A model generated the notes under the pieces. It had not been told where the DNA came from, made no database searches, and worked only from the letters and a program-made list of their open reading frames with translations. Made by a program: the position numbers and the translations under genes. Source: Luteimonas saliphila (GTDB lineage Bacteria; Pseudomonadota; Gammaproteobacteria; Xanthomonadales; Xanthomonadaceae). From it: 64,000 bases of DNA. This document shows, piece by piece, positions 16,698 through 60,048 of this stretch; within the stretch, counting starts at the first letter, position 1, and each line of letters begins with the position of its first letter. The stretch lies in contig NZ_JAETWA010000045.1 of assembly GCF_016774335.1 (NCBI RefSeq), forward strand, positions 248,001-312,000, given 5' to 3'.

Positions 16698-16810
16698 CCG
16701 CAGTGCCCCGGGCAGGGGTCGCGCACCGCTCGGGCAGACGTCCCTGTCCGCACTCGCGGCCGCGGCACATCCCTGTGCCGCTTGCGCAACCCCTGCCCGG
16801 AACACTGCGG
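16698..16810 (-). repeat. structured repeat, GGA-loop hairpins on minus strand
   Basis: A 28-base outer stem pairs 16698-16725 with 16783-16810. Its three imperfect pairs are G-U wobbles if the minus strand is transcribed, but C-A clashes on the plus strand. Inside, 16762-16781 forms a perfect eight-pair hairpin that reads GCGGCACA-GGGA-UGUGCCGC on the minus strand; 16732-16750 forms a second hairpin with GGGA in its loop. The gap 16537-17255 has no credible gene and contains this unit, its inverted partner at 17022-17135, about 210 bases of unassigned sequence between them, and the nirK terminator. Confidence 0.7.
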
Positions 16811-17021
16811 CGCGTCGGCGTCCGTTCCGCGCCTTCGGGGGCGGGTGCGGCGATGTCTTCCAGGTGTCCAACCGCGGTCGAAGACTTTCGATAGGGGCTG
16901 CCGTTGCGCGGAGCAGCGTAGGCGCGGGGGGCGCCCGGGGTCCGATGCTTCGCGGCACCGGCACATCGCTTTGCCGTTCTGGAACTGCTGCTTTCGGAGA
17001 TCGCAGCACGAGCAGCGATGA

Positions 17022-17201
17022 GCCGTGCCCTGGCGCCCGGGGATCGCGGCAAGCAAGACATGGATGTCTTGCGCGCGAGTGAGGGCAGGATGCCCTGACC
17101 GAGCGGAAAGCGATCCCCGGGCGCCAGGGCGCGGCGTCCATCCGGAGCCCCGAAAAGAGAGTGTTCCATCGCGCGCCCATTTCTCCCTCGTTTGGGGAGA
17201 A
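17022..17201 (+). repeat. structured repeat type I, copy A (GGA loops, plus strand)
   Basis: A 26-pair stem joins 17022-17047 to 17110-17135; the only non-Watson-Crick pair is U-G. It encloses hairpin 17053-17072 (GCAAGACA-UGGA-UGUCUUGC) and hairpin 17082-17096 (AGGGCA-GGA-UGCCCU). A third stem, TTCTCCC 17181-17187 with GGGAGAA 17195-17201, follows. A second copy lies at 59872-60048 with compensating changes. No coding capacity is credible. It may be an RNA element carried as a dispersed repeat. Confidence 0.75.
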
Positions 17202-17204
17202 GAA

Positions 17205-17232
17205 CAAAAAAGCCCCCGCTTGCGCGGGGGCT
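17205..17232 (-). terminator. rho-independent terminator after nirK
   Basis: On the minus strand AGCCCCCGC, a four-base loop and GCGGGGGCT are followed by a run of six T. It begins about 24 bases after the nirK stop codon. Confidence 0.9.
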
Positions 17233-17255
17233 TCCGACGACGGGGAGACGCCGGA

Positions 17256-18422
17256 TCAGTTGCTGGACGGCAGGGAAAGATCCGTATCCGGCGCGATCGC
17301 GCCGACCGCCGAGGGGGTGGTCATCAGGTCGTGGTTCCACTTGTCGCCCTCGACCTTGAAGTGGGCCGCCGCACCGAGCAGCACCGCCTCGATCAGGTTG
17401 TGGTTGACGTAGGCGTACATGCCGGGCTGGCGGAAGGTGTACAGCGCCGCGCCCGCCGAACCGCCGCGGATGAACCAGGTCTCCAGGTCCTTGAGCGGGG
17501 CGTTGTTGAACTTGCCTTCCTCCCAGACGTAGTCGCCATGCCCGCCGATCAGGTGCGGACGGGTGTCGCGGTTGGCCTGCGAATGCACCATCAGCACGGT
17601 CTCGCCGACCTTGCTCTTCATCGCGTTCTCGCCCGTCAGGGCGCCGGCGGCACCGTTGAAGACCACGTGCGAGGGCACCAGGCCGCGCATCGCCGCAAGC
17701 GTGTCCGGCAGCGATTCGGCATGCGAACTGTAGGCCTTGAAGTTGCCGTCGGCATCGCGTGGGATGTAGAACTCGGTCTCGCCGATGTAGTAGGCGCGGT
17801 CGTAGCGCAACGCCTTCCCGTCGCCGTCCTTCAGCCCGTCGCGCGGCAGCACCATGATCGTGCCGTGCATACCCGCTACCACGTGCCAAGGGATCATCGG
17901 GCCGCCCGGGGCGCAGTGGTAGACGAAGGTGCCGGGGCGCGTGGCCTTCCAGCGCAGGGTGACTTCCTCGCCGGGCTGGACCACGGTCAGGTCGCCGCCG
18001 CCCATCGCACCGGTCGCGGCGTGGAAGTCGATGTTGTGGGGCATCGTGTTGCTGGCCAGGTTGACCAGCGTGACTTCGACGTAGTCGCCCTCGTGGACCA
18101 CCATCAGCGGACCGGGGATCGAGCCGCCGAAGGTCATCGCATGCATCTTCGTGCCCTCGCCGTCGATGGTGATCTCCTTCTCGACGATGGGCAGGGTGAA
18201 CTGCACGACCTTCGGGCCGCCCTTGGCGACCTGGTCGTGTTCATGCACCAGCGGGGGGCGCTTGAGCTGGACCTGCTGGCGCGGCAGGGCCGCCAGGTCG
18301 GATGCCTGGTCGAGCGTGCGGTTGACCAGCTCCAGCGCGTCGACCGCATGGGCGGGCGAAGGCGCGCCGGCGGCCGCGAGGGCCAGTGCCGATGCCAGTA
18401 GGGTCGTCTGCAGCAGTTTCAT
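17256..18422 (-). CDS. nirK: copper-containing nitrite reductase NirK
   Basis: 388 residues with a signal peptide ([19 protein letters not shown], cleavage near AHA), so periplasmic. It reduces nitrite to NO. Two cupredoxin domains are present. Type 1 copper ligands are in [24 protein letters not shown]; type 2 ligands are the second His of NIDFH, the His of YHC and the His of YVNHNLIEA. Catalytic Asp (NIDFH) and His (IGGHGDYVW) are intact. There is no fused cytochrome. ATG 18422 is chosen for the signal peptide and GAGGAG upstream; the frame extends 21 codons further. An FNR box precedes it. NO made here would be removed by norB. Confidence 0.95.
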
Positions 18423-18485
18423 GAGGCTCTCCTCGATGTCCTCGGGTGTCTGGAGGCATCGTGGGGCCGGGGCGCCGGGAAGCAC

Positions 18486-18499
18486 TTGATCCGCGTCAA
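18486..18499 (-). promoter_or_regulatory. FNR/DNR-type box of nirK
   Basis: TTGATCCGCGTCAA (plus-strand reading). Its centre is 70.5 bases before the nirK ATG. A class II start near 18451 would have CACGAT at 18463-18458 as -10, leaving a 29-base leader with GAGGAG. Confidence 0.8.
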
Positions 18500-18540
18500 G
18501 CAGGAGCCCGCACCGCGTGCTGCATGCGCCGCAGTTGCGG

Positions 18541-18564
18541 CCGGCTTGACGTGGATCAAGCCGG
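18541..18564. promoter_or_regulatory. second FNR-like site / perfect inverted repeat
   Basis: TTGACGTGGATCAA at 18546-18559 is FNR-like and sits within a perfect nine-base inverted repeat (CCGGCTTGA / TCAAGCCGG). It lies 60 bases upstream of the first nirK box and 6 bases beyond the end of the patatin gene. It could be a second activator site for nirK, or a terminator hairpin of the patatin gene lacking a T-tract. Confidence 0.5.
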
Positions 18565-18569
18565 CGGGA

Positions 18570-19622
18570 TCAGCCGCAGGGCTTGTCCTTCGCGAACGGG
18601 TTGAGCCGCCGCACCCAGCTGTCGCCGCAGTCGATGTCGACCGGCGCGATCTCCGCGGCTCGCGCCGCGGCGCGGCGCGCTTCCCCGTCGCGACGCGCCT
18701 GTTCGACGGCGGTGATCCGGGCACGGATCTGCGGCAGGGCCGCCACCGCCGCGCGCTCGCCTTCGAGGATCGCGGCGTTGCGCTGCTCGAAGCTCACCGG
18801 ACCGATCTCGTTGACCTGCGGCCGGATGACCACGTCGGCGCGCGCGAGCTCCTGCCGGCCGAGGGTCTGGCCCATGATCGTGATCGACTGGTTGACAATG
18901 CCGGCCATGCCGGTCGGCGTGCTGCCGCCGGCCTTGCTGGAGATGTCGATGGCGATGACGATGTCGGCGCCGAGCTGGCGCGCCGCATCCACCGGCACCG
19001 GGCTGACCACGCCGCCGTCGACGTAGCTGCGCTCGCCGATGCGGGTCGGCTCGAACACGCCCGGCACGCTGCTCGAGGCGCGCACCGCCTGGCCGGTGTT
19101 GCCGCGCACGAACACCACGCGGTCGCCGGTGTCCAGTCGTGTCGCGACCGCTGCGAACGGCTTCTTCATGCGTTCGATCGGGAGCCTGCCGACCTCCGCG
19201 TTCACGTAGTCCTGCAGCGCCTGGCCCTGCACCAGGCCGCCGGAGAACAGGCGCACGTCGCGCAGGGTCGATTCGTCCAGCGCCACCGCCCGCTCCTGGA
19301 TGCGGAACGGGTCCATGCCGCTGGCGTAGAGCGCGCCGACCACGCTGCCGGCGCTGGTGCCGGCGACCACGTCGGCGCGGATGCCGTTGGCTTCCAGCAT
19401 CTTGATCGCGCCGATATGGGCGAAACCCTTGGCCGCGCCGCCACCGAGCGCCAGCCCGATGCGCGGGGGCGGCGCCGGTGCCGCGGGTGCGACCGGGACG
19501 GGCGCCGGCGGCATTTCCGCGCGCGGCGCATCGCGACCGGCACAGGCCGCCAGCAGCAGGAGCAGCAGCGGCGCGAGCCAAAACGGGGAGGGCGCGGGCG
19601 AGGTCGGGCGCATGCGGATCAT
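18570..19622 (-). CDS. patatin-like phospholipase lipoprotein (RssA-like)
   Basis: 350 residues. The N-terminus has a hydrophobic stretch ending in LLAAC, a lipobox, so it is probably a lipoprotein. The patatin domain follows: glycine-rich oxyanion motif LGGGAAKGFAH at about 58-68, nucleophile elbow GTSAGS, and the catalytic Asp in VDGGVVSPVP. The Ser-Asp dyad is therefore intact, and lipid acyl hydrolysis is expected. The C-terminal third is helical with an Ala/Arg-rich part and two Cys near the end. Starts at 19622 or a few codons later are possible. It is in the same direction as nirK but separated by the nirK control sites. Confidence 0.88.
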   Translation of the reverse strand: MIRMRPTSPAPSPFWLAPLLLLLLAACAGRDAPRAEMPPAPVPVAPAAPAPPPRIGLALGGGAAKGFAHIGAIKMLEANGIRADVVAGTSAGSVVGALYASGMDPFRIQERAVALDESTLRDVRLFSGGLVQGQALQDYVNAEVGRLPIERMKKPFAAVATRLDTGDRVVFVRGNTGQAVRASSSVPGVFEPTRIGERSYVDGGVVSPVPVDAARQLGADIVIAIDISSKAGGSTPTGMAGIVNQSITIMGQTLGRQELARADVVIRPQVNEIGPVSFEQRNAAILEGERAAVAALPQIRARITAVEQARRDGEARRAAARAAEIAPVDIDCGDSWVRRLNPFAKDKPCG

Positions 19623-19712
19623 CGTCGGGGAGCGCGGCGAGGATAGCGTCCATGGGCCTGTCGCCAGCTGAAGCGGCGACGGGCGATGAGCCCCGGCCGG
19701 CGCGCAGGCATG

Positions 19713-19735
19713 AAAAAGGCCGGTTTCCCGGCCTT
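19713..19735 (-). terminator. rho-independent terminator after tRNA-Ala
   Basis: On the minus strand AAGGCCGG, a short loop and CCGGCCTT run into five T. It starts about 18 bases downstream of the tRNA 3' end. Confidence 0.85.
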
Positions 19736-19752
19736 GTTCATCGCATGTCGAT

Positions 19753-19828
<76 letters not shown>

Positions 19829-19841
19829 ACGGCGGACGCGA

Positions 19842-20975
19842 TTATACGGATGTGGGGGCGGTGTCGCCAGCCGCCTCCAGCAGCGGCGACAGCGACGGTT
19901 CGAGCTGGGCGCGGCGCCAGCCCGAGAGCACGCCGGGCCAGTCCTCGCCGTCGAGCAGCGATTCCAGCCAGCGCCGCGACGCCAGCACGCCATCGGGCAG
20001 CCCCAGTTCGATGCTGCGCGCGGAGACCGCGTCCTGGAGGCGCCGCAGGGCCTTGCGGTCGCGCTCGCTGGTGCGTGGCTCCGGGGCCTCGTCCTCGTCG
20101 GGCAGCGGCGTCTCCAATGCGCTCCACACCGAACCGGCTAGCTTGCGCGGGGCCTTGGGGTGCGCGTCGAACAGGCGCTCGAGCGCAGCGCGGTCGGCCG
20201 GCGCCTCGCGCGCCAGGGTGGTCGCCAGCTCGTTGTCCAGCACCCAGTTGCGCGGCCGGTCGCTGCGCCGCGCCTGCGCATCGCGCCAGCGCAGCAGCCG
20301 CAGCAGGCGGCGGCGGGCCGCAACGTCGAGGAACTGCGCGCTGCGCAGGGACAGGTGCGGCCAGCGCTCGCCCTCGTCGTTGCGAGCGCCGTCCAGCAGC
20401 CGTGCGCAGTCCTCGGCGAACCAGTCATCGCGACCGAGTGCGCGCAGCTTCGCCGACAGCGCGTCGTGCAGCGCGAACAGGTGGCGCACGTCCTCGGCGG
20501 CGTAGTCGAGCTGCGCCGGCGAAAGCGGGCGCTTCATCCAGTCCGAGCGGGTTTCGCCCTTGTCGACCGCGATCCCGAGCAGGTCCTGCACCAGCCGCTG
20601 GTAGCCCAGGCCGGCGCCCACGCCGGCCAGCCCCGATGCGATCTGGGTATCGAACAGAGGGTCGGGTACGACGCCGCAGGTCTGGCGCAACGCCACCAGG
20701 TCCTCGCTTGCGCTGTGCATGATCTTGACGATGGACCGGTTCGCCAGCAGCGGTGCGAGCGCTTGGGCCATGCCGCCCACGAGCATGTCGACCAGCAGGA
20801 TCGTCGGCGCGCCGGGTGCGGGCGCCTCGATGGCGACCTGCACCAGCGACAGCTGCGGCCAGTAGGTCCGCTCGCGGATGAATTCGGTATCGATCGCCAC
20901 CCGCGTGGTCGCCTCGGCGAGCTGCGAATGGAGGACGGCGGGGTCTGCGACCCAGATCACTGGCGATGACGACAT
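19842..20975 (-). CDS. rnd: ribonuclease D
   Basis: 377 residues. 3'-5' exoribonuclease that trims tRNA precursors and other structured RNAs. The DEDDy catalytic motifs are DTEFIRERTYWP (Asp29, Glu31), HSASEDLVAL and YAAEDVRHLFAL with the characteristic Tyr. A helical HRDC-like region follows (about 205-370). It lies 13 bases upstream of the tRNA-Ala gene on the same strand, so the tRNA may be partly co-transcribed with its own maturation enzyme. The start has MSSSPVIWVADP, normal for the family. Confidence 0.94.
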   Translation of the reverse strand: MSSSPVIWVADPAVLHSQLAEATTRVAIDTEFIRERTYWPQLSLVQVAIEAPAPGAPTILLVDMLVGGMAQALAPLLANRSIVKIMHSASEDLVALRQTCGVVPDPLFDTQIASGLAGVGAGLGYQRLVQDLLGIAVDKGETRSDWMKRPLSPAQLDYAAEDVRHLFALHDALSAKLRALGRDDWFAEDCARLLDGARNDEGERWPHLSLRSAQFLDVAARRRLLRLLRWRDAQARRSDRPRNWVLDNELATTLAREAPADRAALERLFDAHPKAPRKLAGSVWSALETPLPDEDEAPEPRTSERDRKALRRLQDAVSARSIELGLPDGVLASRRWLESLLDGEDWPGVLSGWRRAQLEPSLSPLLEAAGDTAPTSV

Positions 20976-21085
20976 GGGGCGGCAGCCTAACGGCGGGCGG
21001 GGCGGGATGGCAATCCTGAAACCGGCCGGACCGGAGAAGGGCGCCCGCTGCGCGCCGCTCGTCGCGATGGCTTAATCTGGTGCGG

Positions 21086-22978: not shown

Positions 22979-22996
22979 TGCAGCGGAGGCAGGGCG

Positions 22997-28216: not shown

Positions 28217-28386
28217 GTGATTGGTGACTGGTGATTGGGCGCCCTCCGGGCCCTGTCAATCCGTCATCGACGAAAACGCAGAAAGGCGCGGACTTCCGCG
28301 CCTTTCGCTTTTCTCGAATCACCAATCACGAATCACCAGTCACCAGTCACCAATCACCAATCACGAATCACGAATCACGAATCACC
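28217..28386. repeat. GTGATTGG/CCAATCAC inverted repeat pair, locus 1
   Basis: The left arm 28217-28239 (GTGATTGGTGACTGGTGATT) and the right arm 28316-28386, a run of AATCACC/AATCACG heptamers, are inverted. They flank a bidirectional terminator. The same arrangement occurs at 34825-35025 and 49954-50088. Confidence 0.85.
28281..28313. terminator. htpX terminator (bidirectional)
   Basis: GAAAGGCGCGG, four-base loop, CCGCGCCTTTC, then GCTTTTC on the plus strand and CTGCGTTTTC on the minus strand. It can end htpX and the converging FimX-like gene. Confidence 0.85.
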
Positions 28387-28395
28387 ACACGTCCA

Positions 28396-30486
28396 TCACT
28401 CGAAATCGTAATTCATCACCGGGCTGGCAGTGGCCAGGAAGTGGCCCTCGACGTAGTCCACGCCCGACGAGAACAGGATCGACATGCTGGCCGCGTCCTG
28501 CACGTATTCGGCGATGGTGCGGATGCCCAGTTCCCGCGCGCGCTTGGCGATGTCGCGCACCCGCGCCTGGTTCTCCTCGTTGCGCGGCAGGTCCTCGATG
28601 AAGCTGCGGTCCATCTTGAGGATGTTCGGTTTCAGGTGCGCCAGCAGCTGGAACGAATCCAGGCCGACGCCGAACTGCTCCAGCGCGAGCCGGCAGTCGA
28701 AGCGGCCGATCGCATCGGCGAAGGACTGTGTCGCCTTCAGGTGGGTGAACACCTTGGCCTCGGGCAATTGCAGGACCAGGTACTCGCCCGGGACCCCGTG
28801 CGCCAGCAACTGCTCGCCGATGAACGCGGCCAGCCCCGTGTCGTCGAGCGCGGCCTGGGTCACCTTGACCAGCAGCGTCGTCGGGCGATTGGACGCGATG
28901 CGCTGGCCGAGCACCGAGATCGCCTGGCCGATCACCGCCCGGTCGATTTCGCCGAGCAGGCCGTGCTCCTCGGCGATCTGCATGAAGTTGCCGGGCGAGA
29001 TCAGCTGGCCGTCGCCCGGGTCCAGGCGCAGCAGCGTCTCGTAGGTCGCGCCGGTGTCGCCCTGCAGGTTGATGATCGGCTGGTAGTGCAGCACGAAGCG
29101 CTGGTTGTCGAGGGCGTCGCGCAGGCGCGACACCCAGGCGCGCACGTGCTCCTCCTCGGCGCGGTCCATCGCGGCGGGGTCGAAGATCTCGTAGCGGTTG
29201 CCGCCCACGCCGCTGGACGATTCGGCGCCCTGGGTCGCCTTGGCCAGCACCTGGGAGACGCTGGCGATCTTCTCGCCGATCTGCACGCCGCCGATGCTGG
29301 CGGTGATCACGCTCGAGCGGGTGCCGATCGAGAATACGTCCGCGGAGAAGGCCGCGAGGATACGTTCGGCCAGCGCCGAGGTGCCCGCGTAGTCGCTGCC
29401 GCGGAGCAATACCGCCAGCGTGTGCTCGGAGAAGCGCGCGCCGATCGCGCGTCCGCCGAACTCCGCGTCGCGCAGCAGCGCCTGCAGCCGCTCGCCGATC
29501 GCGGCCAGCAGCGAGTCCGCCGAATCCAGGCCGATGTCCTGCAGCAGCCGGTGGTAGTGGTCGGGCTCGATCAGCAGCAGGCCGTGCTGGCCGTTGTTCT
29601 GGCCGGCGTCGTCGACCGCGTCCTCGAGCGACCGCAGGAAGGTCGGACGGTTGAGCAGGCCGGTCACCTGGTCGCGCTGGCGCAGTTCCTCCAGTTCCTG
29701 GGCCAGTTCGGGATCGAATTCCTGGCGGCGGAGCACCACCTGCAGGCAGGGTTCGCCCTCGTACTGGGCCTGGGTGAATTCCATCGAGGCCGGGAACCCG
29801 TTGCCCTCGAGGTCGCGTGCCTCGAGTTCGTAGCGCGGCGGCGGCGGTTCGCCCTTGGCGAGCGACCTGAGCAACTGCTTGAAATCCTCGACGTGCTGCG
29901 AGCCGACCATGTCCAGCAGCGACATCCCCTCGATGTCCTCGAAGCTGTCGTAGCCGAACATCTCCAGATAGGCGCTGTTGGCGCGGATGTGCATGCCTTC
30001 GTGCACGTAGGCGATGGGGTCGCGCGAGGACTCGATCAGTGCGTCGCAGCGGCGTTCGGTCTCGCGCAGGCGCGCCTCCAGGCGGCGCTGGGCGCGACGT
30101 GCCTCGAGGTCGTCCCATTCGTTGCGGACCTGGGAGAGGACCTGCTGCGGCCGGTGGCGGAGCGCGACGGCACGGGCCCCGGCGCTCAGGACCGCGTCGT
30201 ATTGCGCCTCGTCGAGGCGTTCCGCGATCGCGATCACCGGCAGGTCCTTGCCGGTGCCCGTGACCAAGCTCATGGCGTCCTCGAACGTCAGCGACTGCGC
30301 CGCCAGCGCCGCCAGCACGAGGTCGGCGGGTCCCGCCAGCGCGGTGGTGAGTTCCTCCGCGGTGGCGGCCCGCACCGGGCGGACCGCGATCCCGGCATTG
30401 CGCAGGCCGCTGACCAGCGCCTCGGCGTCCTCGACGCGCTCGTCGACGATCAGCAGGCGCAGGGCGTTGTCAGGCTTCTTCGGCAT
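28396..30486 (-). CDS. fimX: FimX/Filp-like degenerate GGDEF-EAL c-di-GMP receptor
   Basis: 696 residues, close to Pseudomonas FimX (691). Order: degenerate receiver (1-130, LLIVDERVEDAEAL without a full acidic pocket), PAS (about 150-250), GGDEF-like (270-420) and EAL-like (440-690). The GGDEF signature is replaced by RFSEHTLAVLL, and EAL is ETLLRL, so neither cyclase nor phosphodiesterase activity is expected. The EAL-like domain probably binds c-di-GMP as a sensor. FimX and the Xanthomonas homologue Filp govern type IV pilus assembly and twitching. No pilus gene is in the window. Confidence 0.85.
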   Translation of the reverse strand: MPKKPDNALRLLIVDERVEDAEALVSGLRNAGIAVRPVRAATAEELTTALAGPADLVLAALAAQSLTFEDAMSLVTGTGKDLPVIAIAERLDEAQYDAVLSAGARAVALRHRPQQVLSQVRNEWDDLEARRAQRRLEARLRETERRCDALIESSRDPIAYVHEGMHIRANSAYLEMFGYDSFEDIEGMSLLDMVGSQHVEDFKQLLRSLAKGEPPPPRYELEARDLEGNGFPASMEFTQAQYEGEPCLQVVLRRQEFDPELAQELEELRQRDQVTGLLNRPTFLRSLEDAVDDAGQNNGQHGLLLIEPDHYHRLLQDIGLDSADSLLAAIGERLQALLRDAEFGGRAIGARFSEHTLAVLLRGSDYAGTSALAERILAAFSADVFSIGTRSSVITASIGGVQIGEKIASVSQVLAKATQGAESSSGVGGNRYEIFDPAAMDRAEEEHVRAWVSRLRDALDNQRFVLHYQPIINLQGDTGATYETLLRLDPGDGQLISPGNFMQIAEEHGLLGEIDRAVIGQAISVLGQRIASNRPTTLLVKVTQAALDDTGLAAFIGEQLLAHGVPGEYLVLQLPEAKVFTHLKATQSFADAIGRFDCRLALEQFGVGLDSFQLLAHLKPNILKMDRSFIEDLPRNEENQARVRDIAKRARELGIRTIAEYVQDAASMSILFSSGVDYVEGHFLATASPVMNYDFE

Positions 30487-32208: not shown

Positions 32209-32665
32209 CGGCCCACGCGCCCCGCGCGTGGCTGCCGTTGCGTCATCCCGAGCCGCAGGCGAGGGATCTTCTCACGAGCGATGCGATACACCGGGCCCAC
32301 GCGCACCGCGCGTGGCTGCCGTTGCGTCATCCCGAGCCGTAGGCGAGGGATCTTGTCAGGCCGACGCGGGTCGCCGCAGCCCGATTCCTCACCCGCTGCA
32401 CGGATTCGGAATGACAGCTAGTGGGGAGGACCGGCTGGCAGCATCGCTGGCACCTGCTCCCGCCGGCCGCGGCGTTTTGTCATCCCGAGCCGTAGGCGAG
32501 GGATCTTGCCGGGCGGCCGACGCGGGTCGCCGCAGGCGGATTCCTCACCCGCTGTGCGGGCCCAGACTGACGGATACCGCGACCCGGCTCTTCGCGCAGG
32601 TCCGGTTCCGGACAGCGATGCCGGGCGATCCGTCATCCGCTTGGCGCCTACGGGATGACAGAATG
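32209..32665. repeat. dispersed CATCCCGAG repeats in efp-mtaD gap
   Basis: The 467-base gap has no gene. It holds three copies of GTCATCCCGAGCCGTAGGCG followed by AGGGATCTT, at about 32241-32270, 32325-32354 and 32479-32508. The first two lie in a longer 60-base direct repeat (32209-32270 and 32295-32354) that begins GCCCACGCGC. Inverted partner fragments ending GGAATGACAG and GGGATGACAG are at 32407-32418 and 32651-32661. Relatives are at 51289-51366 and 63382-63407. Confidence 0.8.
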
Positions 32666-34824: not shown

Positions 34825-35025
34825 GTGATTGGTGGTTGGTGATTGGGATGCACAATCCGGTCCGGCCAGGCTGCGGCGGGGCGCTTTGATGGGATCACGA
34901 ACGAATTCGATCGAGTCCTGGCTCGACGTCTTCACGGCGCTCGCTGAAGCGCAATGCGAACAAGGGAAAAGCCGGGAAGCGGCATGGCAATGACCGGATC
35001 ACGAATCACGAATCACCAATCACGG
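34825..35025. repeat. GTGATTGG/CCAATCAC inverted repeat pair, locus 2
   Basis: Left arm 34825-34847 (GTGATTGGTGGTTGGTGATT) follows the ubiG stop; right arm 34997-35025 (GATCACGAATCACGAATCAC and on) lies inside the start of the next gene and is translated there as SRITNHQSR. Confidence 0.85.
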
Positions 35026-40124: not shown

Positions 40125-40451
40125 CGTAGCCCGGGTAAGCGAAGCGCACCCGGGATGGGACGGCAGGCGTGCCGGGAACGGCGCAGGCGCCCCGGATGCG
40201 GCCTTCGGCCTTATCCGGGCTACGGCCGCCACACCACGTAGCCCGGGTAAGCGCAGCGCACCCGGGTGGGAGGATGCGGGCGCACCGCGAATCTGCGCAG
40301 GCGCCCCGGATGCGGCCTTCGGCCTTATCCGGGCTACGGCCGCCACACCGCGTAGCCCGGGTAAGCGAAGCGCACCCGGGATGGGGCGGCTGGCGCGCCG
40401 GGAGCCTGCGCGGCGCCCCGGATGCGGCCTTCGGCCTTATCCGGGCTACGG
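40125..40451. repeat. three-copy tandem palindromic repeat, ~112 bp units
   Basis: Units start at 40125, 40237 and 40351. Each begins CGTAGCCCGGGTAAGCGAAG, carries a variable GC-rich middle and ends GGCCTTATCCGGGCTACGG, so each unit is itself an inverted repeat. The last copy supplies the TAG stop of the M23 peptidase gene (40446-40448). This array fills the gap between the converging genes at 40050-40445; nothing else is seen there. Confidence 0.9.
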
Positions 40452-41390
40452 CGTGCGTTCAAGCACCAACTGGGGATCGATGCGCACGTCGAACCAGCTC
40501 ATGCCCCAATGCAGATGCGGCCCCGTCGACCGCCCGGTCGAGCCCACGGCCGCGATCACCTGGCCCTGTTCCACCCGATCGCCGACCTTCACGTCGATCC
40601 GCGACAGATGCAGGAAGTTGCTGCTGATGCCATGGCCGTGGTCGACCAGCAGGGTGCCGCCGGTCAGGTACAGGTCCTTGTCGGCGAAGGTCACGACGCC
40701 CGCGGCGGGCGCGAGCACCGGCGTGCCGCTGGCGGCCGCGATGTCCATGCCCGAATGCGGCGCACCGGGCTTGCCGTTGTAGACGCGGGCGCGACCGAAA
40801 CGGCCGCTGATGCGTCCCTCGACCGGGCGCACGAAGGCCTGGGTGAAATCGGCGCGGGCATCGTCGCGGACGCGCGCAGCTGCGACCCGCGCCTGCTCGC
40901 GGCGGATGCGTTCGGCGATGGCCGGCGGCGGGTCGACGGTTTTCGCCGGTACCCCGTTCACGCGTTGCAACGGCCAGTCGCGCGCGGCTACCGCGATGCC
41001 CGCCTCCTCGCGGCTGCCATCGGGGCGTACCACCGACACGACCAGCGGACCGACCGCATCGCGACCCACGCCGAACACCACGGTGCCGTAGCCGGTGGTG
41101 CGCAGCGTGCGTCCGGCGTGGGTCACGGTGCTGCCCGGCGGCACCTTGCCCAGGACCATCGCACCCTGCTGCACGCTGGCGGGAAACACCAGCCGGTCGT
41201 CCGACGTGGCGGGCGCCGCCGCCTTGTCGTCGGCGACAGCCGGCGACGGCAAGACCGCAGCGGACAGCGCGAACAGCGTCGGCACGAGCGCGAAGCCGGC
41301 GCGATGCCACCACCTTCCCTGGTCCGCCAGCTTCCCGTGCAACGCGATCGCCACCCGACCGCCCGCCGGCGGTCGCGGACGCCACGTCAT
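40446..41390 (-). CDS. M23 family (LytM-type) peptidoglycan endopeptidase
   Basis: 314 residues from ATG 41390. N-terminal signal anchor (FALVPTLFALSAAVLPSPAVA, about 32-52), a beta domain (60-150), a helical linker, then the LytM domain with zinc ligands in HSGMDIAA and HLHWG and flanking RFGRARVYNG and VDHGHGISSNFLHL. It should cleave peptide cross-links in the periplasm or activate amidases. The ATG overlaps the pyrC stop (ATGA), so it is coupled to it. Its stop codon lies within a tandem repeat. Confidence 0.9.
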   Translation of the reverse strand: MTWRPRPPAGGRVAIALHGKLADQGRWWHRAGFALVPTLFALSAAVLPSPAVADDKAAAPATSDDRLVFPASVQQGAMVLGKVPPGSTVTHAGRTLRTTGYGTVVFGVGRDAVGPLVVSVVRPDGSREEAGIAVAARDWPLQRVNGVPAKTVDPPPAIAERIRREQARVAAARVRDDARADFTQAFVRPVEGRISGRFGRARVYNGKPGAPHSGMDIAAASGTPVLAPAAGVVTFADKDLYLTGGTLLVDHGHGISSNFLHLSRIDVKVGDRVEQGQVIAAVGSTGRSTGPHLHWGMSWFDVRIDPQLVLERTP

Positions 41391-46128: not shown

Positions 46129-46599
46129 GGGTTCATTTCTTTTGATGGCGCCAAAAGAAACGAACCAAAGAAAAGGCGCTTTCCCGCAAGTGCACAAGCT
46201 CGCGACCGGAGGCGGGAACGGGATTTTTCGACACGGCATCCATGCCGTGGCGAAAAACGGCGCGCGTCCTGCGCGCCGCCCTCCGGGTCTCTCGTTCCGA
46301 CGTCGCATCACCAAGGGCAGAAGCGGACCCAGTGAGTCCAACTTTTTTTGGGAACAGCGTCGCGCAAGGATGATCGACGGGAGGCAGGACAAAGAACAGA
46401 CTTTCGCGCACTTTCTCAAACCACCGCGTGAATTCCAGACCCGGAGGGCGCCGCACAGGATGTGCGGCGTTTTCCGACCGAGCCATGGATGGCGAGTCGG
46501 AAAATCCCGATTCGCTATCAGCCTCGAGCTTGTGCCGTTGCGGGGAAAGCGTTTTTCTTTGGTTCGTTTCTTTTGGCGCTTTCCAAGAGAAATGAACCC
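46129..46599. repeat. 470-bp inverted repeat with GGA-loop hairpins in both arms
   Basis: Arms 46129-46300 and 46430-46599 are inverted imperfect copies, from GGGTTCATTTCT to AGAAATGAACCC. Right arm, plus strand: hairpin 46449-46469 (CGCCGCACA-GGA-TGTGCGGCG) and hairpin 46470-46504, a nine-pair TTTTCCGAC stem capped by GCCA-UGGA-UGGC. Left arm, minus strand: 46277-46259 with AGGAC in the loop and 46257-46224 capped by UGGA. The centre contains GGACCCAGTGAGTCC then seven T, a possible terminator. The gap 45889-46669 has no other recognisable content and no credible gene. Confidence 0.75.
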
Positions 46600-46669
46600 G
46601 CTCGCCGACGGCGAGCGGAAGCTGTTGCACTATTTAGAGACCGGGTGGACCAGCGAGCTGCAGCACTCT

Positions 46670-49964: not shown

Positions 49965-50088
49965 TTGGTGATTGGTAAGGGCAAAGGCCGGGACGACGTC
50001 CCCGTTCCACATGTTTCATTTCCAGAGATCTTCCCCATGCAGCAGTCCGCTTCATCGAATCACGGATCACGAATCACCAATCACGAGT
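49954..50088. repeat. GTGATTGG/CCAATCAC inverted repeat pair, locus 3
   Basis: Left arm 49954-49975 contains the argF' stop codon; right arm 50058-50088 lies inside the 5' end of argG and is translated as [12 protein letters not shown]. The interval could fold as an intercistronic hairpin. Confidence 0.85.
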
Positions 50089-51275
50089 CCCGCGACATCG
50101 TCCTCGCCTTCTCCGGCGGACTGGACACCAGCTTCTGCGTGCCCTACCTGCAGGAACGCGGCTGGAACGTGCACACCGTGTTCGCCGACACCGGCGGGGT
50201 CGATGCGGACGAACGCGAGTTCATCGAGAAGCGTGCGGCCGAGCTGGGCGTGGCCAGCCACGTCACCGTCGACGGCGGGCCTGCGATCTGGAGCGGCTTC
50301 GTCAAGCCGTTCGTCTGGGCCGGCGAGGGCTACCAGGGCCAGTACCCGCTGCTGGTGTCGGACCGTTACCTGATCGTGGACGCGTCGCTCGCGCGCGCCG
50401 CCGAGCTCGGCACCAACGCGATCGCGCATGGCTGCACCGGCATGGGCAACGACCAGGTGCGTTTCGACCTGGCGATCAAGGCCAGCGGCGATTACCGCAT
50501 CCTGGCGCCGATCCGCGAGATCCAGAAGGAGCACACCCAGACCCGCGTCTACGAGCAGGCCTACCTGGAGCAGCGCGGTTTCGGCGTGCGCGCCAAGCAG
50601 AAGGCCTACACGATCAACGAGAACCTGCTGGGCGTGACCATGTCCGGCGGCGAGATCGACCAGTGGGAGGCACCGGGCGAGGGCGCGCGCGGCTGGTGCG
50701 CGCCACGCGGCGCCTGGCCGGTCGAGCCGCTGACGGTGAGCCTGCGCTTCGAGCGCGGCGAGGCGGTGGAACTCGACGGCAAGATCCTGCCGGGCGAACA
50801 GATCCTGGCGAAGCTCAATCGCCTCTTCGCCTCGTACGGCGTGGGCCGCGGCATGTACACCGGCGACACCGTGATCGGCCTGAAGGGCCGCATCGTCTAC
50901 GAAGCGCCGGGTCTGGTGGCATTGCTCACCGCGCATCGCGCGCTCGAAGAGGCGGTGCTGAGTAAGCAGCAGAACCGCTTCAAGCCGGAGGTGGCGCGCA
51001 AGTGGGTCGAACTGGTCTACGAGGGCTTCTTCCACGATCCGCTGAAGACCGACCTCGAGGCGTTCCTGGCCTCGTCGCAGCAGCAGGTCACGGGCGAGGT
51101 GGTGCTGGAGACCCGCGGCGGGCGCGTGGACGCGGTGGCGGTCAAGTCGCCGCACCTGCTGCATTCCACGGGTGCCACCTACGCGCAGTCGGCCGACTGG
51201 GGCGTGGAAGAGGCGGAGGGCTTCATCAAGCTGTTCGGCATGAGCAGCACGCTCTGGGCGGAGGTCAATCGCTGA
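50037..51275 (+). CDS. argG: argininosuccinate synthase
   Basis: 412 residues from ATG 50037. ATP-binding [20 protein letters not shown] is close to the N-terminus. [18 protein letters not shown] and [20 protein letters not shown] are conserved. It joins citrulline to aspartate. The family protein normally starts only a few residues before DIVLAFSGG; here 19 extra residues ([19 protein letters not shown]) occur, largely encoded by a dispersed repeat. GTG 49965 is in frame but inside the other repeat arm. Second gene of the operon. Confidence 0.94.
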
Positions 51276-51366: not shown

Positions 51367-51399
51367 AGCTAGAGTCCGCCTGCAGGACGAAAGAAGACC

Positions 51400-53807: not shown

Positions 53808-53810
53808 GCG

Positions 53811-54422: not shown

Positions 54423-55372
54423 GCCACGCACCCGTTTCCCTCGGCATCGTCGGCGCGCGCGGCCACACCGGCCGCGAGCTGATCCGGCTGGTGGCCGCGC
54501 ATCCGCGCTTCGCGCTGGCGTTCGTGTCGTCGCGCGAACTCGACGGGCAGCGCGTCGATGCGCACGACGACGGTTACACCGGCGACCTGCGCTTCGAATC
54601 GCTGGCCGCCGATGCGGTCGCGGCCAAGGCGGCCGACGCCGTCGTGCTGGCGCTGCCCAATGGCAAGGCCGCGCCCTTCGTCGCCGCACTGGACGCGGCG
54701 AGGCCGGAGACGGTGATCGTCGACCTGTCCGCCGACTACCGCTTCGACGAAAGCTGGCATTACGGCCTGCCGGAACTCACACGCGGCCGCCATGCGGGCC
54801 GGAAACGGATCAGCAACCCGGGCTGCTACGCGACCGCGATGCAGCTGGCGATCGCACCGGTGCTCGATCGGCTGGCCGGTCCGCCCCAGTGCTTCGGCGT
54901 GTCCGGCTACTCGGGCGCGGGCACGACGCCGTCCGACAAGAACAATATCGAGCTGCTTCGCGACAACCTGATGCCCTACGCGCTGGTCGGGCACATGCAC
55001 GAGCGCGAAGTATCGCGCCAGCTGGGCAGGCCGGTGGACTTCATGCCGCATGTCGCGCCGCACTTCCGCGGCATCACCATGACCGTGAACCTGCACCTGT
55101 CGGAGCCGGTGGAGCTCGCGACGGTGCGCGCGCTGTACCGCGAGCGCTATGCCGGCGAGCCGCTGGTGCGCATCGTCGACGAGGCGCCGTGGGTCAGCCG
55201 GATCGCCGGCCGGCACGGCGTCGAGATCGGTGGCTTCGCGGTGGGCGCGGACGGCCGGCGACTGGTGGTGGTGGCCACGCTCGACAACCTGCTCAAGGGC
55301 GCCGCGACGCAGGCGATGCAGAACCTCAACCTCGCCTTCGGCTTCGACGAGATGACTGCGATTCCCGGATAG
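54419..55372 (+). CDS. argC: N-acetyl-gamma-glutamyl-phosphate reductase
   Basis: 317 residues. Rossmann motif [16 protein letters not shown], catalytic Cys in [18 protein letters not shown], and the C-terminal [13 protein letters not shown]. It reduces acetylglutamyl phosphate made by ArgB. The start overlaps the stop of the GNAT gene (ATGA). Followed by a 116-base gap before argH without a clear promoter. Confidence 0.95.
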
Positions 55373-55488
55373 GACGGGTACTGGCCGGCATCGGAGGCGC
55401 GCCGCGACGCTTGCCCGCCGCGCTCCACGATCACCTGGTTGTTGGAACACAATGTGGCGGAGCGCGACCCCGCCCCACGGAGAACAAG

Positions 55489-56781
55489 ATGTCCGACCTG
55501 TTGTGGCAGAAGCCTGGCGTCGAAGTGGACGCGCGGATCCAGCACTTCCTCGCCGGCGACGACGTGGTGCTCGACCGCGAGTTCTTCCTGCACGACATCC
55601 GCGCCAGCGCCGCGCACGCGCAGGGCCTGCAACGCATCGGTATCCTGTCGAGCGGGGAACTGGCCGGCCTCGAGCGCGAACTCGCGCAGCTCGGCGACGA
55701 TTTCCGTTCCGGCGCCTTCGTGCTCGACGAGCGTTACGAGGACGGCCACTCCGCGATCGAGGCGCGGCTCACCGAGCGCCTGGGCGACACCGGCCGCAAG
55801 ATCCACGCCGGCCGCAGCCGCAACGACCAGGTGCTGGTGGCCACGCGCCTGTGGCTGAAGGAGAAGCTGGCGCGGGTGTCGTCGCTCTCGCGCGAGATCG
55901 CGAAAGTGGCGCTGGACCGCGCGCAGGCCGAACGCGACCTGCCGATCCCGGGCTACACCCATGTGCAAAGGGCCGTGGTGTCCTCGGCCGGCATGTGGTG
56001 GGCCGGCTGGGCCGAGGCCTTCATCGACGATGCGGTGCGCGCGGCCGACACGCTCGCGCTGGTCGACTGCAATCCGCTCGGCACCGCCGCCGGCTACGGG
56101 GTCAACCTGGCGCTCGACCGCGACCACACCACCACGGCGCTCGGTTTCGGGCGCATGCAGGTTTCGCCGGTCTACGCCCAGCTCTCGCGCGGCAAGTTCG
56201 AGCTGGCCGCGCTGGAGGCGCTCGGCAGCGCCACGCTCGACCTGCGCCGCATCGCCTGGGACCTGTCGCTGTTCACCAGCGCCGAGTTCGGCTTCGTGGC
56301 ATTGCCGGCGCAGTACACCACCGGCAGCTCCATCATGCCCAACAAGCGCAATCCCGACGTGATCGAGCTGATGCGAGCCACCCACGCCAGCGTCGCCGCC
56401 GCGCGCACCGAGATCGAGCAGTTGCTATCGCTGCCGTCGGGCTACCACCGCGATCTGCAGGGCTCCAAGGGCGCGATCTTCCACGGCTTCGGTCGCGGTC
56501 TGGCCGCGCTGGAACTGCTGCCGGCGCTGCTGGCCAACCTCGAATGGCGCGAGGACCGGCTGCGCGCCGCGATCGATCCGGGCATGTACGCCACAGACGT
56601 GGCGGTCGAGGCGGCGGTGGCCGGCGTGCCGTTCCGCGAGGCCTATCGGGCCGCGGCCGCCGGTGCCGGTCCGGCCGGAGAGGGACGCACGCCGGAAGCC
56701 AGCCTGGCCGCGCGCGTCTCGCCCGGCGCGGCCGGCGACCTGCGGCTCGATGCGTTGCAGGCACGCTGGGAGGCCTTGTGA
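55489..56781 (+). CDS. argH: argininosuccinate lyase
   Basis: 430 residues of the fumarase/ASL superfamily. [50 protein letters not shown] and the signature [18 protein letters not shown] are intact. It releases arginine and fumarate. It is shorter than most (about 460); the C-terminal part after VPFREAYR is reduced. CGGAGA precedes ATG 55489. Its stop overlaps the start of the next gene (GTGA). Confidence 0.95.
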
Positions 56782-57047
56782 GCACGCCCGTGACGCGCTA
56801 CCTGGTGGTGCTGATGCGGCGACCCGGCTTCGACCAGGCGCTGGTCGCGCCGCACATGGCGTTCCTCGACGAGCTGCGCGGGCAGGGACTGCTGGAGACG
56901 AGTGGCGGTTTCGGCGACGGCAGCGGCGGGGCCTATGTGCTGATCGGGGTCGCCAGTCTCGAAGAGGCAGGGGCAATCGCCGCGCGCGATCCCCTGGCGA
57001 TCCATGGCGCCTCGGACGTGACCGTGCACGAATGGATCACGCGCTGA
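56778..57047 (+). CDS. YciI family small protein
   Basis: 89 residues from GTG 56778, overlapping the argH stop. Ferredoxin-like YciI/muconolactone isomerase fold: [20 protein letters not shown] at the start, then [20 protein letters not shown] and [19 protein letters not shown]. Its position between argH and proB on overlapping or near-contiguous frames places it in the operon. The family has no known general reaction. Confidence 0.83.
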
Positions 57048-57051
57048 GCCG

Positions 57052-58191
57052 ATGGACGCCCACGCCTTCTCCGAACAGCTTCTTCCGCCCTGGCGGCGCG
57101 CCGTGCTCAAGGTCGGCAGCAGCCTGCTGGCCGCGAACGGGGGTGGCCTGTCGACCGAGTACGCGCAGGCGATCGCGGGATTCGTCGTCGCCTCGCACGC
57201 GATCGGCAGGGAGGTGGTGGTGGTGTCCTCGGGCGCGGTCGCGGCCGGGCGCGCGATCATGCGCGAGCAGCCGCAGGATGGCGCCGAGATGGCCGAACGC
57301 CAGGCGCTCGCCGCGCTGGGCCAGGCGCGCCTGATCGGCTTCTGGCAGGGATTGCTCGACCGCCACGTGGCGCAGGTGCTGCTGACCCACGACGACCTGC
57401 GCAACCGCCGCCGCTATCTCAACGCGCGAGCCACGCTGTCGGCGCTGCTGCGCCACCGCGCGGTGCCGGTGGTGAACGAGAACGACACGGTGTCGGTGGA
57501 CGAGCTCAAGCTCGGCGACAACGACAACCTGGCCGCGATCGTCGCCGCGCTGGTCGACGCCGACGTGCTGTTCATCGCCACCGACATCGACGGTCTCTAC
57601 GACGCCGATCCGCGCCGCAATCCCGATGCGCGTCCGGTGGAAGTGGTGCCGCAACTGACCCCGGCGCTGCTGTCGGCGGCGGGTGGCACCGGCAGTGCGG
57701 CGGGCACGGGTGGGATGCGTACCAAGCTCGAGGCGGCGCAGCGGGCTTCGGCCGCGGGCGTGGCCACGGTACTGTTCAACGGCACCCGGGCCGACGTGCT
57801 GGCGGGGCTTGCGACCGACCGCCTGCGCGGCACCCGCATCCATGCCCTGCGCAGCCGTGTCGCGGTGCGCAAGCACTGGCTGCAGAACGCACCGGCCGAA
57901 CCCGGCGCCATCGTCGTCGACGCGGGCGCGGCCAATGCGCTGGTGGAGAAGGGGGCTTCGTTGCTGCCGGGCGGAGTGGTCACCGCCGAGGGCGACTTCC
58001 GCCGCGGCGACATGGTCGAGATCGTGCAGCGCGACGAGCGCGGCAGCCGCCGCGTCGCGCGCGGGGTCAGCCAGTACTCCGCCGCCGACATCCGTCGCGT
58101 GGCGCGCCGCCATTCGCGCGAGATCGAGGCGGTACTGGGTTACAGCTACGGCGGTACCGTCATCCACCGCGACGACCTCATGCTGGTGTAG
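57052..58191 (+). CDS. proB: glutamate 5-kinase
   Basis: 379 residues. Amino-acid-kinase domain with [39 protein letters not shown] and [12 protein letters not shown]; a C-terminal PUA domain (about 275-375, [20 protein letters not shown] to [15 protein letters not shown]). First step of proline synthesis from glutamate. It starts 4 bases after the YciI gene, so proline genes are appended to the arginine operon. Proline feedback control is expected from the family. Confidence 0.95.
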
Positions 58192-58267
58192 GGAAACATC
58201 GCGGCATCGAAAGGGCTTCACCCACGACCCGCCAACGCACCCTGGATCACTTCCTTCCAACCCCGCC

Positions 58268-59524
58268 ATGACCGACATCCGCCAGATCGCCCTCCGATGC
58301 CGCGACGCCGCCCAGGCGGTCGCCGCGTTGCCGACCGACGCCAAGGACGCGATGCTGCACGCGATGGCCGACGCCCTGTTGGCCGACGCGGCGGCGATCC
58401 TCGCCGCGAACGCGCAGGACATGGAGGCTGCGCAGGCCAAGGGGGTGGGACCGGCGATGCTGGATCGCCTGCGACTGGACGACGCCAGACTCGACGGTAT
58501 CGCGATGGCCTTGCGCGAGGTCGCTGCGCTGCCCGATCCGGTGGGACAGGTGACGCGACGCGACAGCCGGCCCAACGGCATCGCCGTGGAGCGCGTGCGC
58601 ACGCCGCTCGGCGTGGTCGCGATGATCTACGAGGCCAGGCCCAACGTGACTGCGGACGCGGCGGCACTGTGCCTGAAGGCCGGCAACGGCGTGATCCTGC
58701 GCGGCGGCAGCGAGGCGCTCGGTTCCAACCAGGCGATCGCGGCCGCGCTGCAACGGGCGCTGGTCGCCGCCGGAGTGCCGGCCGCCGCATTGACGATCGT
58801 CGAGGATCTTCGTCGCGAGACCATGCTCGAACTGCTGCAGCTCACCGATATCGTCGATCTCGCGATCCCGCGCGGGGGCGAGGGGCTGATCCGCTTCGTC
58901 GCCGAGCACGCGCGGGTGCCGGTGATCAAGCACTACAAGGGCGTCTGCCACCTGTACGTCGATGCCGAAGCGGACCAGGATCTCGCCCTGCGGCTGCTGG
59001 TCGACGGCAAGGTTTCCCGCCCCAGCGCCTGCAATGCGCTGGAGACGCTGCTGGTGCATGCCGACGCCGCCGCGGCCTTCCTGCCGCGTGCCGCCGCGGC
59101 CCTGCGCGGGCATGGCGTCGAGTTGCGCGGCGATGCCGCCACGCGGACGATCGTCGCGGATGTGGGCGAGGCGACCGAAGACGACTACGGTGCCGAGTAC
59201 CTCGACCTGGTGATCGCGATCCGGGTGGTCGACTCGCTCGACGCGGCGCTCGCCCACATCCGCCGCCACGGCTCGGACCACACCGAGGTGATCGCCACGC
59301 GGAATGCCGGGAATGCGGAGAGATTCGTGCAGGCGCTGCGCTCGGCGGTGGTGATGGTCAATGCCTCGTCGCGTTTCAGCGACGGCGGCGAGCTCGGCCT
59401 CGGCGCCGAGATCGGCATCTCCACCACCCGGCTGCATGCCTACGGACCGATGGGCCTGGAGGCGCTGACGGTGGAGCGCTTCGTGGTCCGGGGCGAGGGA
59501 CAGACGCGCAACATCCACGCCTGA
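58268..59524 (+). CDS. proA: gamma-glutamyl phosphate reductase
   Basis: 418 residues. Aldehyde dehydrogenase fold: [20 protein letters not shown] start, [32 protein letters not shown], catalytic Cys in [15 protein letters not shown], and [18 protein letters not shown]. Reduces glutamyl phosphate to glutamate semialdehyde. The ATG at 58268 is 76 bases after proB. It ends the arg-pro operon. Confidence 0.95.
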
Positions 59525-59692
59525 CTCTGAGCGCCGCAAAAAGAAGGATCTTCTCCAATGTAAGGGATACTGACCCGGTTGTCGGAGATTGGACCCGGGC
59601 TTGCGGCCGGGGGTCGTTCCGGGCCGGGGATTGCTACCCGGCTCGGTCAGCCCGCTGCGCGGTCCGGCTCGGCGCAGCGCGCCGGGCGCTCA

Positions 59693-59772
59693 CGCGGACG
59701 CGCGGCTGTGCCGCGCAAGACGTCCGCGCTCGCCCATGGCTGACTCGCCGCCGCAGCGCATCCATGCGCTGC
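59693..59772 (-). repeat. structured repeat with GGA loop, minus strand (copy B partner)
   Basis: Hairpin 59753-59772 reads GCAGCGCA-UGGA-UGCGCUGC on the minus strand. A second nested stem, CGCGGACG 59693-59700 with CGTCCGCG 59721-59728, encloses CGCGGC-TGT-GCCGCG. This is the left-hand partner of the unit at 59872. The 641-base gap 59525-60165 contains only these units and unassigned GC-rich sequence. Confidence 0.6.
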
Positions 59773-59871
59773 TTTTCGCAACCCCCGACCCGGAACGCCC
59801 ATCGGCCAGTCATCTGCCTGGCTTCGAAGGAGCTGGCCACCGGGCCACCGCGGCCAGGGCAACAACGGTGA

Positions 59872-60048
59872 GCCGCGTCCTGGCGCCCGGGGATCGCGGC
59901 AAGCAAAACATGGATGTTTTGCGCGCGAGTCAGGGCACGATGCCCTGACCGAGCGGAAAGCGATCCCCGGGCGCCGGGGCGCGGCGTCCATCCGAAGTCC
60001 TGACTGGGACTTCCCCATCGCAGACCATTTCTCCCTCACATGGGAGAA
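59872..60048 (+). repeat. structured repeat type I, copy B
   Basis: The 26-pair stem (59872-59897 with 59960-59985) has two U-G pairs and no mismatch. Hairpin 59903-59922 reads GCAAAACA-UGGA-UGUUUUGC; relative to copy A a G-C pair is replaced by A-U. Hairpin 59931-59948 is TCAGGGCA-CGA-TGCCCTGA, with the GGA loop changed to CGA. The third stem TTCTCCC/GGGAGAA (60029-60035 and 60042-60048) is kept with a different loop. About 175 bases match copy A closely. Confidence 0.75.

What the first reader, a model, noticed from the sequence alone, without database searches (positions are those of the whole stretch)
16698..60048. Hypothesis: dispersed repeats act as RsmA/CsrA decoy RNAs
RsmA/CsrA binds GGA in hairpin loops, and known antagonist RNAs (CsrB, RsmY, RsmZ) are strings of such hairpins. 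Units at 16.7, 17.0, 46.2, 46.45, 59.75 and 59.9 kb share this feature, with both hairpins of a unit on the same strand in most cases. Their dispersion after genes could titrate RsmA in proportion to readthrough of many operons, a distributed sponge rather than one dedicated sRNA. No rsmA gene is in the window.
Basis: inference. Interest (0 to 1): 0.8.

Follow-up and report, generated by a model that had tools for sequence, protein, structure and literature searches.

The report
Dispersed RNA hairpins resembling RsmA decoys
This bacterium (Luteimonas by its closest matches) carries families of repeated RNA hairpins that look like binding sites for the global regulator RsmA/CsrA, some of them inside ribosomal-protein and respiration operons, so making those mRNAs could soak the regulator up; binding itself has not been tested.

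Summary
In detail: all six units exist and 10 of 12 loops carry GGA. The window has 7 long-stemmed CA(N)GGA(Y)G hairpins; 40 shuffles gave mean 0.1. It is a hot spot, though: 400 kb of unselected sequence of the same genome had 2. The genome encodes a canonical RsmA and a second copy. The window units are two repeat scaffold groups; in one (B) stems are exchanged between copies while 14 of 14 loops keep GGA. A third family (C), outside the window, is the strongest evidence: 22 units at 11 sites, 9 of 11 on the strand of the upstream gene and starting at its stop codon, including L15-SecY, SecY-S13, NuoK-NuoL and ThiS-ThiG; it recurs after a permease gene in Xanthomonas sacchari. Other gammaproteobacteria have up to 183 copies of one GGA hairpin on other scaffolds. 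Against: second loops of most A and E copies have lost GGA; B loops are buried in full-length folds; terminator-like sites separate window units from neighbouring genes; Rfam scores are below cut-off; the CsrA-presence test is confounded; in RsmU, GGA substitution did not abolish RsmA binding. RsmA binding is likely; a distributed sponge is plausible and untested.

The parts
16702..16806 (-). D-type unit: outer stem with two GGA hairpins (loops AGGGAT at 16762-16781 and AGGGAC at 16734-16751)
   Evidence: sequence; fold; alignment A2; both GGA unpaired with probability 1.0
17022..17135 (+). A-type unit: long outer stem, hairpin 1 loop ATGGAT (17053-17072), hairpin 2 loop AGGAT (about 17082-17096)
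   Evidence: sequence; fold; nine near-full copies in the genome including this one; both GGA unpaired
17208..17235 (-). terminator-like hairpin with T-rich tail between the nirK-like gene (17256, -) and the A-type unit
   Evidence: 1 found, 0.5 expected in shuffles
46130..46600 (.). B-type composite element: two inverted units between long inverted outer arms
   Evidence: eight units in four inverted pairs in the genome
46218..46285 (-). B-type unit: loops AGGAC (46258-46278) and ATGGAT (46232-46249)
   Evidence: RsmW-like match 20.0 bits, cut-off 52
46440..46515 (+). B-type unit: loops AGGAT (46449-46469) and ATGGAT (hairpin GCCATGGATGGC at about 46482-46493)
   Evidence: TwoAYGGAY-like match 46445-46508, 27.4 bits, cut-off 43
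59616..59797 (-). E-type unit: hairpin 1 loop ATGGAT (59753-59772); second hairpin disrupted, GGG instead of GGA
59870..59990 (+). A-type unit: hairpin 1 loop ATGGAT (59903-59922); hairpin 2 loop ACGAT, no GGA (59929-59949)
   Evidence: (91% to the 17.0 unit)
60062..60085 (-). terminator-like hairpin between the 60166 gene (-) and the 59.9 unit
   Evidence: 2 found, 0.4 expected

Best explanation
The units are dispersed intergenic repeats whose shared functional core is a pair of RsmA/CsrA-binding stem-loops: A(N)GGA(Y) loops on exchangeable stems. When the GGA strand is transcribed, one RsmA dimer can bridge the two loops of a unit. Units inside strongly transcribed operons, above all the C-type family in the ribosomal-protein, nuo and thi operons, would form a distributed RsmA sponge whose dose follows transcription of those operons; the window units (A, B, D, E) are weaker or occasional contributors. 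Shown here: the hairpins, their excess over chance, exchange of stems with retention of loops, predicted accessibility of most loops, coding-strand placement of 9 of 11 C-type sites, a canonical RsmA. Inferred: RsmA binding (I put it at about 0.8), transcription of the window units, and titration as the effect in the cell (about 0.5 for the whole statement).
For: Excess over chance. Stem exchange with loop retention: 14 of 14 loops in seven B units, loop 1 in 14 of 14 printed A copies, 6 of 6 D loops; double-sided changes in 16 of 26 pairs of A2. C family: 22 units over 40 bits at 11 sites, 9 of 11 sites on the upstream gene's strand and starting -11 to +3 nt from its stop codon, neighbours L15-SecY, SecY-S13, NuoK-NuoL, ThiS-ThiG; GGA kept in 26 of 28 second and 24 of 28 third hairpins but in no first-hairpin loop; also in X. 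sacchari, 2 nt after a permease gene. C loops more often unpaired than other GGA of the same transcripts (0.64-0.95 against 0.19-0.47, local folds, seven contexts). RsmA present, 46 of 53 residues as in solved homologue 1vpz. SELEX consensus, ANGGAN loop and two-site bridging (passages of PMC7652899). Precedents: TwoAYGGAY proposed as CsrA-binding (PMC4333381), 3'UTR-derived RsmU (PMC7694677), RrA/B/F in rRNA operons (PMC8144298). Other genomes with the same plan on other scaffolds.
Against: No binding or expression data. Loop 2 keeps GGA in 3 of 14 A copies and 0 of 6 E copies. B loops have probability about 0 of being unpaired in the full-length fold. Terminator-like sites separate window units from neighbours. 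Stems of 6-8 pairs are longer than most SELEX hairpins (four pairs or fewer), and several loops are pentaloops. 400 unselected kb hold few units. No match reaches the Rfam cut-off of TwoAYGGAY. Excess in genomes with CsrA is not corrected for size or kinship, is not significant at 8 or more copies, and one genome without detected CsrA has 15 copies. In RsmU, replacing all four GGA did not abolish RsmA binding or function, so GGA alone is an imperfect guide; RrA/B/F changes had modest effects.
Confidence: 0.5

Rival explanations
1. RsmA binds the units but acts locally: a cis element at the end of a cistron that sets stability or translation of neighbouring genes of its own mRNA, with no meaningful titration of the RsmA pool.
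For: C-type units sit between genes of operons, directly after stop codons; L066 array ends close to the NuoL-like frame.
Against: Distance to the next gene varies from overlap to over 400 nt, so no fixed position at a ribosome-binding site; tandem arrays of up to six units are more than one local switch needs.
Confidence: 0.2
2. REP-like or MITE-like selfish DNA repeats: hairpins are needed for mobility or arise from it, and the GGA loop is a feature recognised in DNA, not RNA.
For: Dispersed copies, inverted pairs, contig breaks at the repeats; presence at the nirK-like site in 1 of 9 Luteimonas relatives; four Y1_Tnp genes in the genome; covarying palindromes are also expected of DNA.
Against: In the fetched flanks of the four Y1_Tnp genes (1.5 kb a side, less at one contig end) one GGA hairpin of five pairs appears (L239) and nothing like a unit; unrelated scaffolds share the loop; in C units the first hairpin has no loop conservation; 9 of 11 C sites share one strand with the upstream gene.
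Confidence: 0.2
3. Protective 3' stem-loops: stable hairpins after stop codons shield upstream mRNA from exonucleases, as recalled for REP elements between malE and malF; GGA loops are incidental.
For: C-type units begin at stop codons within operons and have strong stems.
Against: Retention of GGA in loops II and III but not in loop I is not explained by stability alone.
Confidence: 0.1

Closest known systems
TwoAYGGAY RNA (Rfam RF01731, clan CL00106), listed by Weinberg 2010 (PMC2864571) and proposed as CsrA-binding by Gardner and Eldai 2014 (PMC4333381)
   Same: Two hairpins with AYGGAY-type terminal loops within an outer stem; B unit 46445-46508 aligns to it
   Different: Best score in the genome 27.5 bits against a cut-off of 43, none over; here multi-copy repeats with several scaffolds and tandem arrays in operons
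CsrB / RsmY / RsmZ antagonist sRNAs
   Same: Strings of GGA stem-loops expected to bind several RsmA dimers
   Different: Not one dedicated gene; no sigma-70-like promoter found at the three window sites; spread over many loci
RsmU of Xanthomonas campestris (PMC7694677, passages)
   Same: RsmA-binding RNA derived from an mRNA 3' UTR in the same bacterial family
   Different: Single-locus; its sequence was not compared here; its binding survived GGA substitution
RrA/RrB/RrF of E. coli (PMC8144298, abstract and passages)
   Same: CsrA-binding RNA made by reading on from a growth-linked operon
   Different: rRNA operons and three near-identical copies; here protein operons and repeat families
REP/BIME elements with RAYT transposases (recalled)
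   Same: Dispersed intergenic palindromes, often in inverted pairs
   Different: No unit seen beside the Y1_Tnp genes; the kept part is the loop

Membership tests
CsrA/RsmA-binding RNA (works like) | A(N)GGA in hairpin loops, two or more per RNA at 10-63 nt | tested here: met
   not for A and E units that lost loop 2
CsrA/RsmA-binding RNA (works like) | RsmA/CsrA encoded in the genome | tested here: met
CsrA/RsmA-binding RNA (works like) | Physical binding of RsmA/CsrA | not testable with these tools
   needs gel shift or CLIP
CsrB/Rsm antagonist sRNA | Dedicated sRNA gene with its own promoter and terminator | tested here: not met
   no sigma-70-like promoter at the three window sites (a consensus scan only); C-type units lie inside operons
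TwoAYGGAY (RF01731) | Score at or above the Rfam gathering score of 43 bits | tested here: not met
   best 27.5 bits, 0 over cut-off
TwoAYGGAY (RF01731) | Two AYGGAY-loop hairpins within an outer stem | tested here: inconclusive
   A, D and one B unit fit the plan, but loops are often AGGAY or ANGGAY
REP/RAYT | RAYT-type gene flanked by copies of the repeat | tested here: not met
   4 Y1_Tnp matches, no unit in their fetched flanks; the flank of one is cut by a contig end
Intrinsic terminators | U tract after the hairpin | tested here: not met
   of the GGA hairpins only 46262-46276 (-) is listed; the other sites are separate hairpins

The most novel reading that the evidence does not exclude
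Across many gammaproteobacteria, unrelated families of intergenic repeats have converged on, or spread because of, paired RsmA/CsrA-binding hairpins. Together they form a genome-wide sponge whose size evolves by copy number, and copies inside ribosomal-protein and respiratory operons couple the free level of RsmA to growth.
Probability: 0.35. Interest if true: 0.88.

Novelty: new variant of a known kind. Interest (0 to 1): 0.72.

Why it matters
If the units bind RsmA, the free level of a global regulator would be set by repeat copy number and by how strongly repeat-bearing operons are transcribed, not only by a few dedicated sRNAs. That would give dispersed bacterial repeats a testable function, supply candidates where no RsmY/Z-like RNA is known, and change how RsmA regulons are modelled.

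Tried and rejected
Rfam at gathering score found two tRNAs only in the window; at loose E-values over two 601-base stretches TwoAYGGAY, RsmW and unrelated families appeared, all below cut-off. A hairpin census of 464 kb without a loop rule showed 169 hairpins against 97 in one randomised set, 30 against 17 with GGA: no special GGA excess at that level; loop-anchored counts were needed. CAGGATG and CAGGACG cores alone showed no clear excess of stems over control cores. RAYT link tested. Plasmid searches with an A unit and with a unit of genome G256 found nothing; a C unit found X. sacchari. Nine Luteimonas loci of the nirK-like gene: one (L089) has an E-like hairpin downstream, eight have none there under the rule used. 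Model R1: matches up to 27 bits occur in unselected sequence; I counted only the 22 of 29 matches above 40 bits and dropped seven weaker ones; one X. sacchari match of 28 bits stayed in the 28-row loop count. Second-hairpin test: clear in G256 (14 of 19 anchors same strand, 0 opposite, 1.8 expected), weak in G321 (10 same, 7 opposite of 20; 4.2 expected) and in the mixed set (14 same, 8 opposite of 28; 6.5 expected), nothing in loci of 20 other genomes (7 same, 6 opposite of 21; 4.9 expected). CsrA association: 1197 copies (control 80) in 324 genomes with CsrA, 50 (control 7) in 46 without; Mann-Whitney one-sided P 0.001, uncorrected for genome size and kinship.
Full report
What was checked. 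The window is bases 248001-312000 of contig C43 of an unnamed 4.65-Mb draft genome. Nine Luteimonas loci are the closest named relatives of its nirK-like gene (77-90% identity), so the genome is Luteimonas-like. The six cited units are present. Ten of their twelve loops carry GGA; the second loops at 59.75 and 59.9 do not. With a fixed rule (CA, optional base, triplet, Y, G, closed by at least 6 Watson-Crick pairs) the window has 7 GGA hairpins, GGA being the commonest triplet; 40 randomised windows gave mean 0.1 and maximum 2. The same rule gave 2 in 400 kb of unselected stretches from 11 contigs, so the window is unusually rich and the phrase 'dispersed' needs that qualification.

Scaffolds. 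The window units are A, D and E types (17.0 and 59.9; 16.7; 59.75), which share the plan hairpin, CGAGT, hairpin, CCGAG within an outer stem (alignment A2), and B type (46.2 and 46.45), inverted units of one composite element. An A query finds nine copies at 91% identity or more including itself, two at 78-80%, and fragments; several lie at contig ends, so the count is uncertain. B gives eight units of 80% or more in four inverted pairs, and four fragments. In A2 16 of 26 predicted pairs have a change on both sides with the pair kept; palindromic DNA would covary too, so this shows a hairpin, not RNA as such. The loop pattern says more. In the seven B units printed both stems are exchanged between copies (three distinct first stems and four distinct second hairpins; several copies are near-identical) and 14 of 14 loops are A(N)GGA(T/C). 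In the 14 A copies printed loop 1 keeps GGA in 14, loop 2 in 3 (two truncated copies counted as lost; fragments such as L070 and L208-L210 not counted). D keeps GGA in 6 of 6 loops of three copies. E keeps loop 1 in 6 of 6 copies and loop 2 in none of those six, while L081 has one intact second E hairpin.

Regulator. PF02599 finds two CsrA genes. One lies after an alaS-like frame (recalled from its sequence) and shares 46 of 53 residues with the solved homologue 1vpz. Passages of a CsrA review (PMC7652899) give the SELEX consensus RUACARGGAUGU, the RsmE ANGGAN hexaloop, and bridging of two sites 10 to 63 nt apart. Here ATGGAT and AGGGAT closed by C-G fit the hexaloop; several loops are pentaloops (AGGAT, AGGAC). 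GGA-to-GGA spacing is 26 nt at 17.0, 29 nt at 46.45 and 44 nt in L065 (read). The same review says most SELEX hairpins had four pairs or fewer; stems here are longer.

Accessibility. In predicted ensembles the GGA loops of A, D and E are unpaired with probability 0.99-1.0, local or global. Of four B loops three are unpaired when pairs are limited to 120 nt, and all four are paired in the full-length fold. In seven C-type contexts the CANGGAYG loops average 0.64-0.95 unpaired in local folds (0.54-0.83 global) against 0.19-0.47 (0.15-0.46) for other GGA in the same transcripts.

C-type family. Clusters of CATGGATG led to a third family. A unit of about 120 nt has a first hairpin without GGA in its loop, a second with CANGGATG and a third with CATGGAYG; arrays hold up to six units. 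Model R1 gives 29 matches at E 0.01, 22 of them over 40 bits, at 11 sites. My frame caller, a codon-usage script that splits some genes, puts 9 of 11 sites on the strand of the upstream gene; in all nine the model start lies -11 to +3 nt from the end of that gene. Two of 11 are on the other strand. Pfam labels of neighbours: L15 then SecY; SecY then S13; an opposite-strand unit between L18 and S5; NuoK-type then NuoL-type; ThiS then ThiG; ThiG then a methyltransferase; a sugar-type ABC permease; a MacB/FtsX protein before an ABC ATPase; a CobD/CbiB-like protein just over its cut-off; one upstream gene without a Pfam match. In Xanthomonas sacchari record NZ_CP010410 (called a plasmid, 508 kb) units start 2 nt after an annotated carbohydrate ABC transporter permease; three matches score 82-94 bits and a fourth 28. 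This is the best evidence that GGA in the loop, not the hairpin alone, is retained, and that such units are transcribed on the GGA strand.

Other genomes. GCCATGGATGGC was counted in 370 genomes drawn from the class: 228 have it. G219 has 183, G256 118, G007 54, G365 49, G321 38, G243 34, each with 0 for the pattern read backwards. The flanks differ between genomes. In G256 a long outer stem encloses a hairpin with ANGGAY (N variable) and GCCATGGATGGC, the plan of the A type. A second GGA hairpin lies on the same strand at 14 of 19 G256 anchors and on the opposite strand at none; the test is weak in G321 and shows nothing in loci of 20 other genomes. CsrA is found in 324 of the 370 genomes. 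Copies are more frequent in genomes with CsrA, but this is uncorrected for size and kinship, is not significant at 8 or more copies, and one genome without detected CsrA has 15.

Mechanism. The most economical reading is a set of repeats whose common cargo is paired RsmA sites. Titration follows if enough copies are transcribed, which the C-type placement makes plausible. E. coli RrA/B/F (abstract and passages, PMC8144298) and Xanthomonas RsmU (abstract and passages, PMC7694677) are precedents of operon-derived RNA that binds CsrA or RsmA; in the first the phenotypes were modest, in the second replacing all four GGA did not abolish binding or function. For the window units the readthrough model is weaker: terminator-like sites lie beside all three elements (1, 3 and 2 found against 0.5, 1.2 and 0.4 expected), and a transcript shows GGA from one unit of each inverted pair. 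Local action and selfish spread remain live rivals.

Prior work. TwoAYGGAY appears in a table of Weinberg 2010 (row seen, PMC2864571) and is proposed as CsrA-binding by Gardner and Eldai (passages, PMC4333381). No match in the genome reaches its cut-off, so the units are not filed as members. Full-text searches of the open-access library (listings seen; passages of nine papers or fewer read) showed no paper that describes dispersed CsrA-binding repeats or such arrays in protein operons; subscription papers are not covered.

Noticed in passing
L002 (G000:C28:131732-131890): A second CsrA gene among short frames that look phage-like to me (not tested).
   Followed up: no
L067 (G000:C12:8500-14000): Three C-type units within a ribosomal-protein gene cluster: one opposite-strand between L18 and S5, one between L15 and SecY, one between SecY and S13.
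   Followed up: partly
C-type sites; L066, L068, L202, L204, L205, L312: The first C-type unit is usually preceded by GGGTGAG or similar, the stop codon itself, as if the element had a preferred site at stop codons.
   Followed up: no
   Followed up: no
L089 4341 (Luteimonas wenzhouensis): An E-like GGA hairpin lies downstream of the nirK-like gene as in the window; eight other Luteimonas loci lack one there.
   Followed up: partly
window 28291-28399, 34995-35024, 50032-50099: Tandem seven-base units of the kind TCACCAA/TCACGAA in three intergenic places.
   Followed up: no
window 40125-40452: Three tandem copies of about 102 nt at a spacing of 112-114 nt.
   Followed up: no
window 32210-32511: Repeats containing GTCATCCCGAGCCG(C/T)AGGCGAGGGATCTT, another dispersed-looking intergenic repeat.
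   Followed up: no
ends of contigs C8, C24, C34, C35, C36, C43: A-type units lie at contig ends, as if the assembly broke at them, so copy numbers are uncertain.
   Followed up: no
loci of G219 and G365 (L244, L245, L250, L251): GGA hairpins lie inside repeats with ends like GTCATCCCGGC...GCCGGGATGAC, and a GAATACGTCCATGTA motif (GGA on the other strand) recurs.
   Followed up: no
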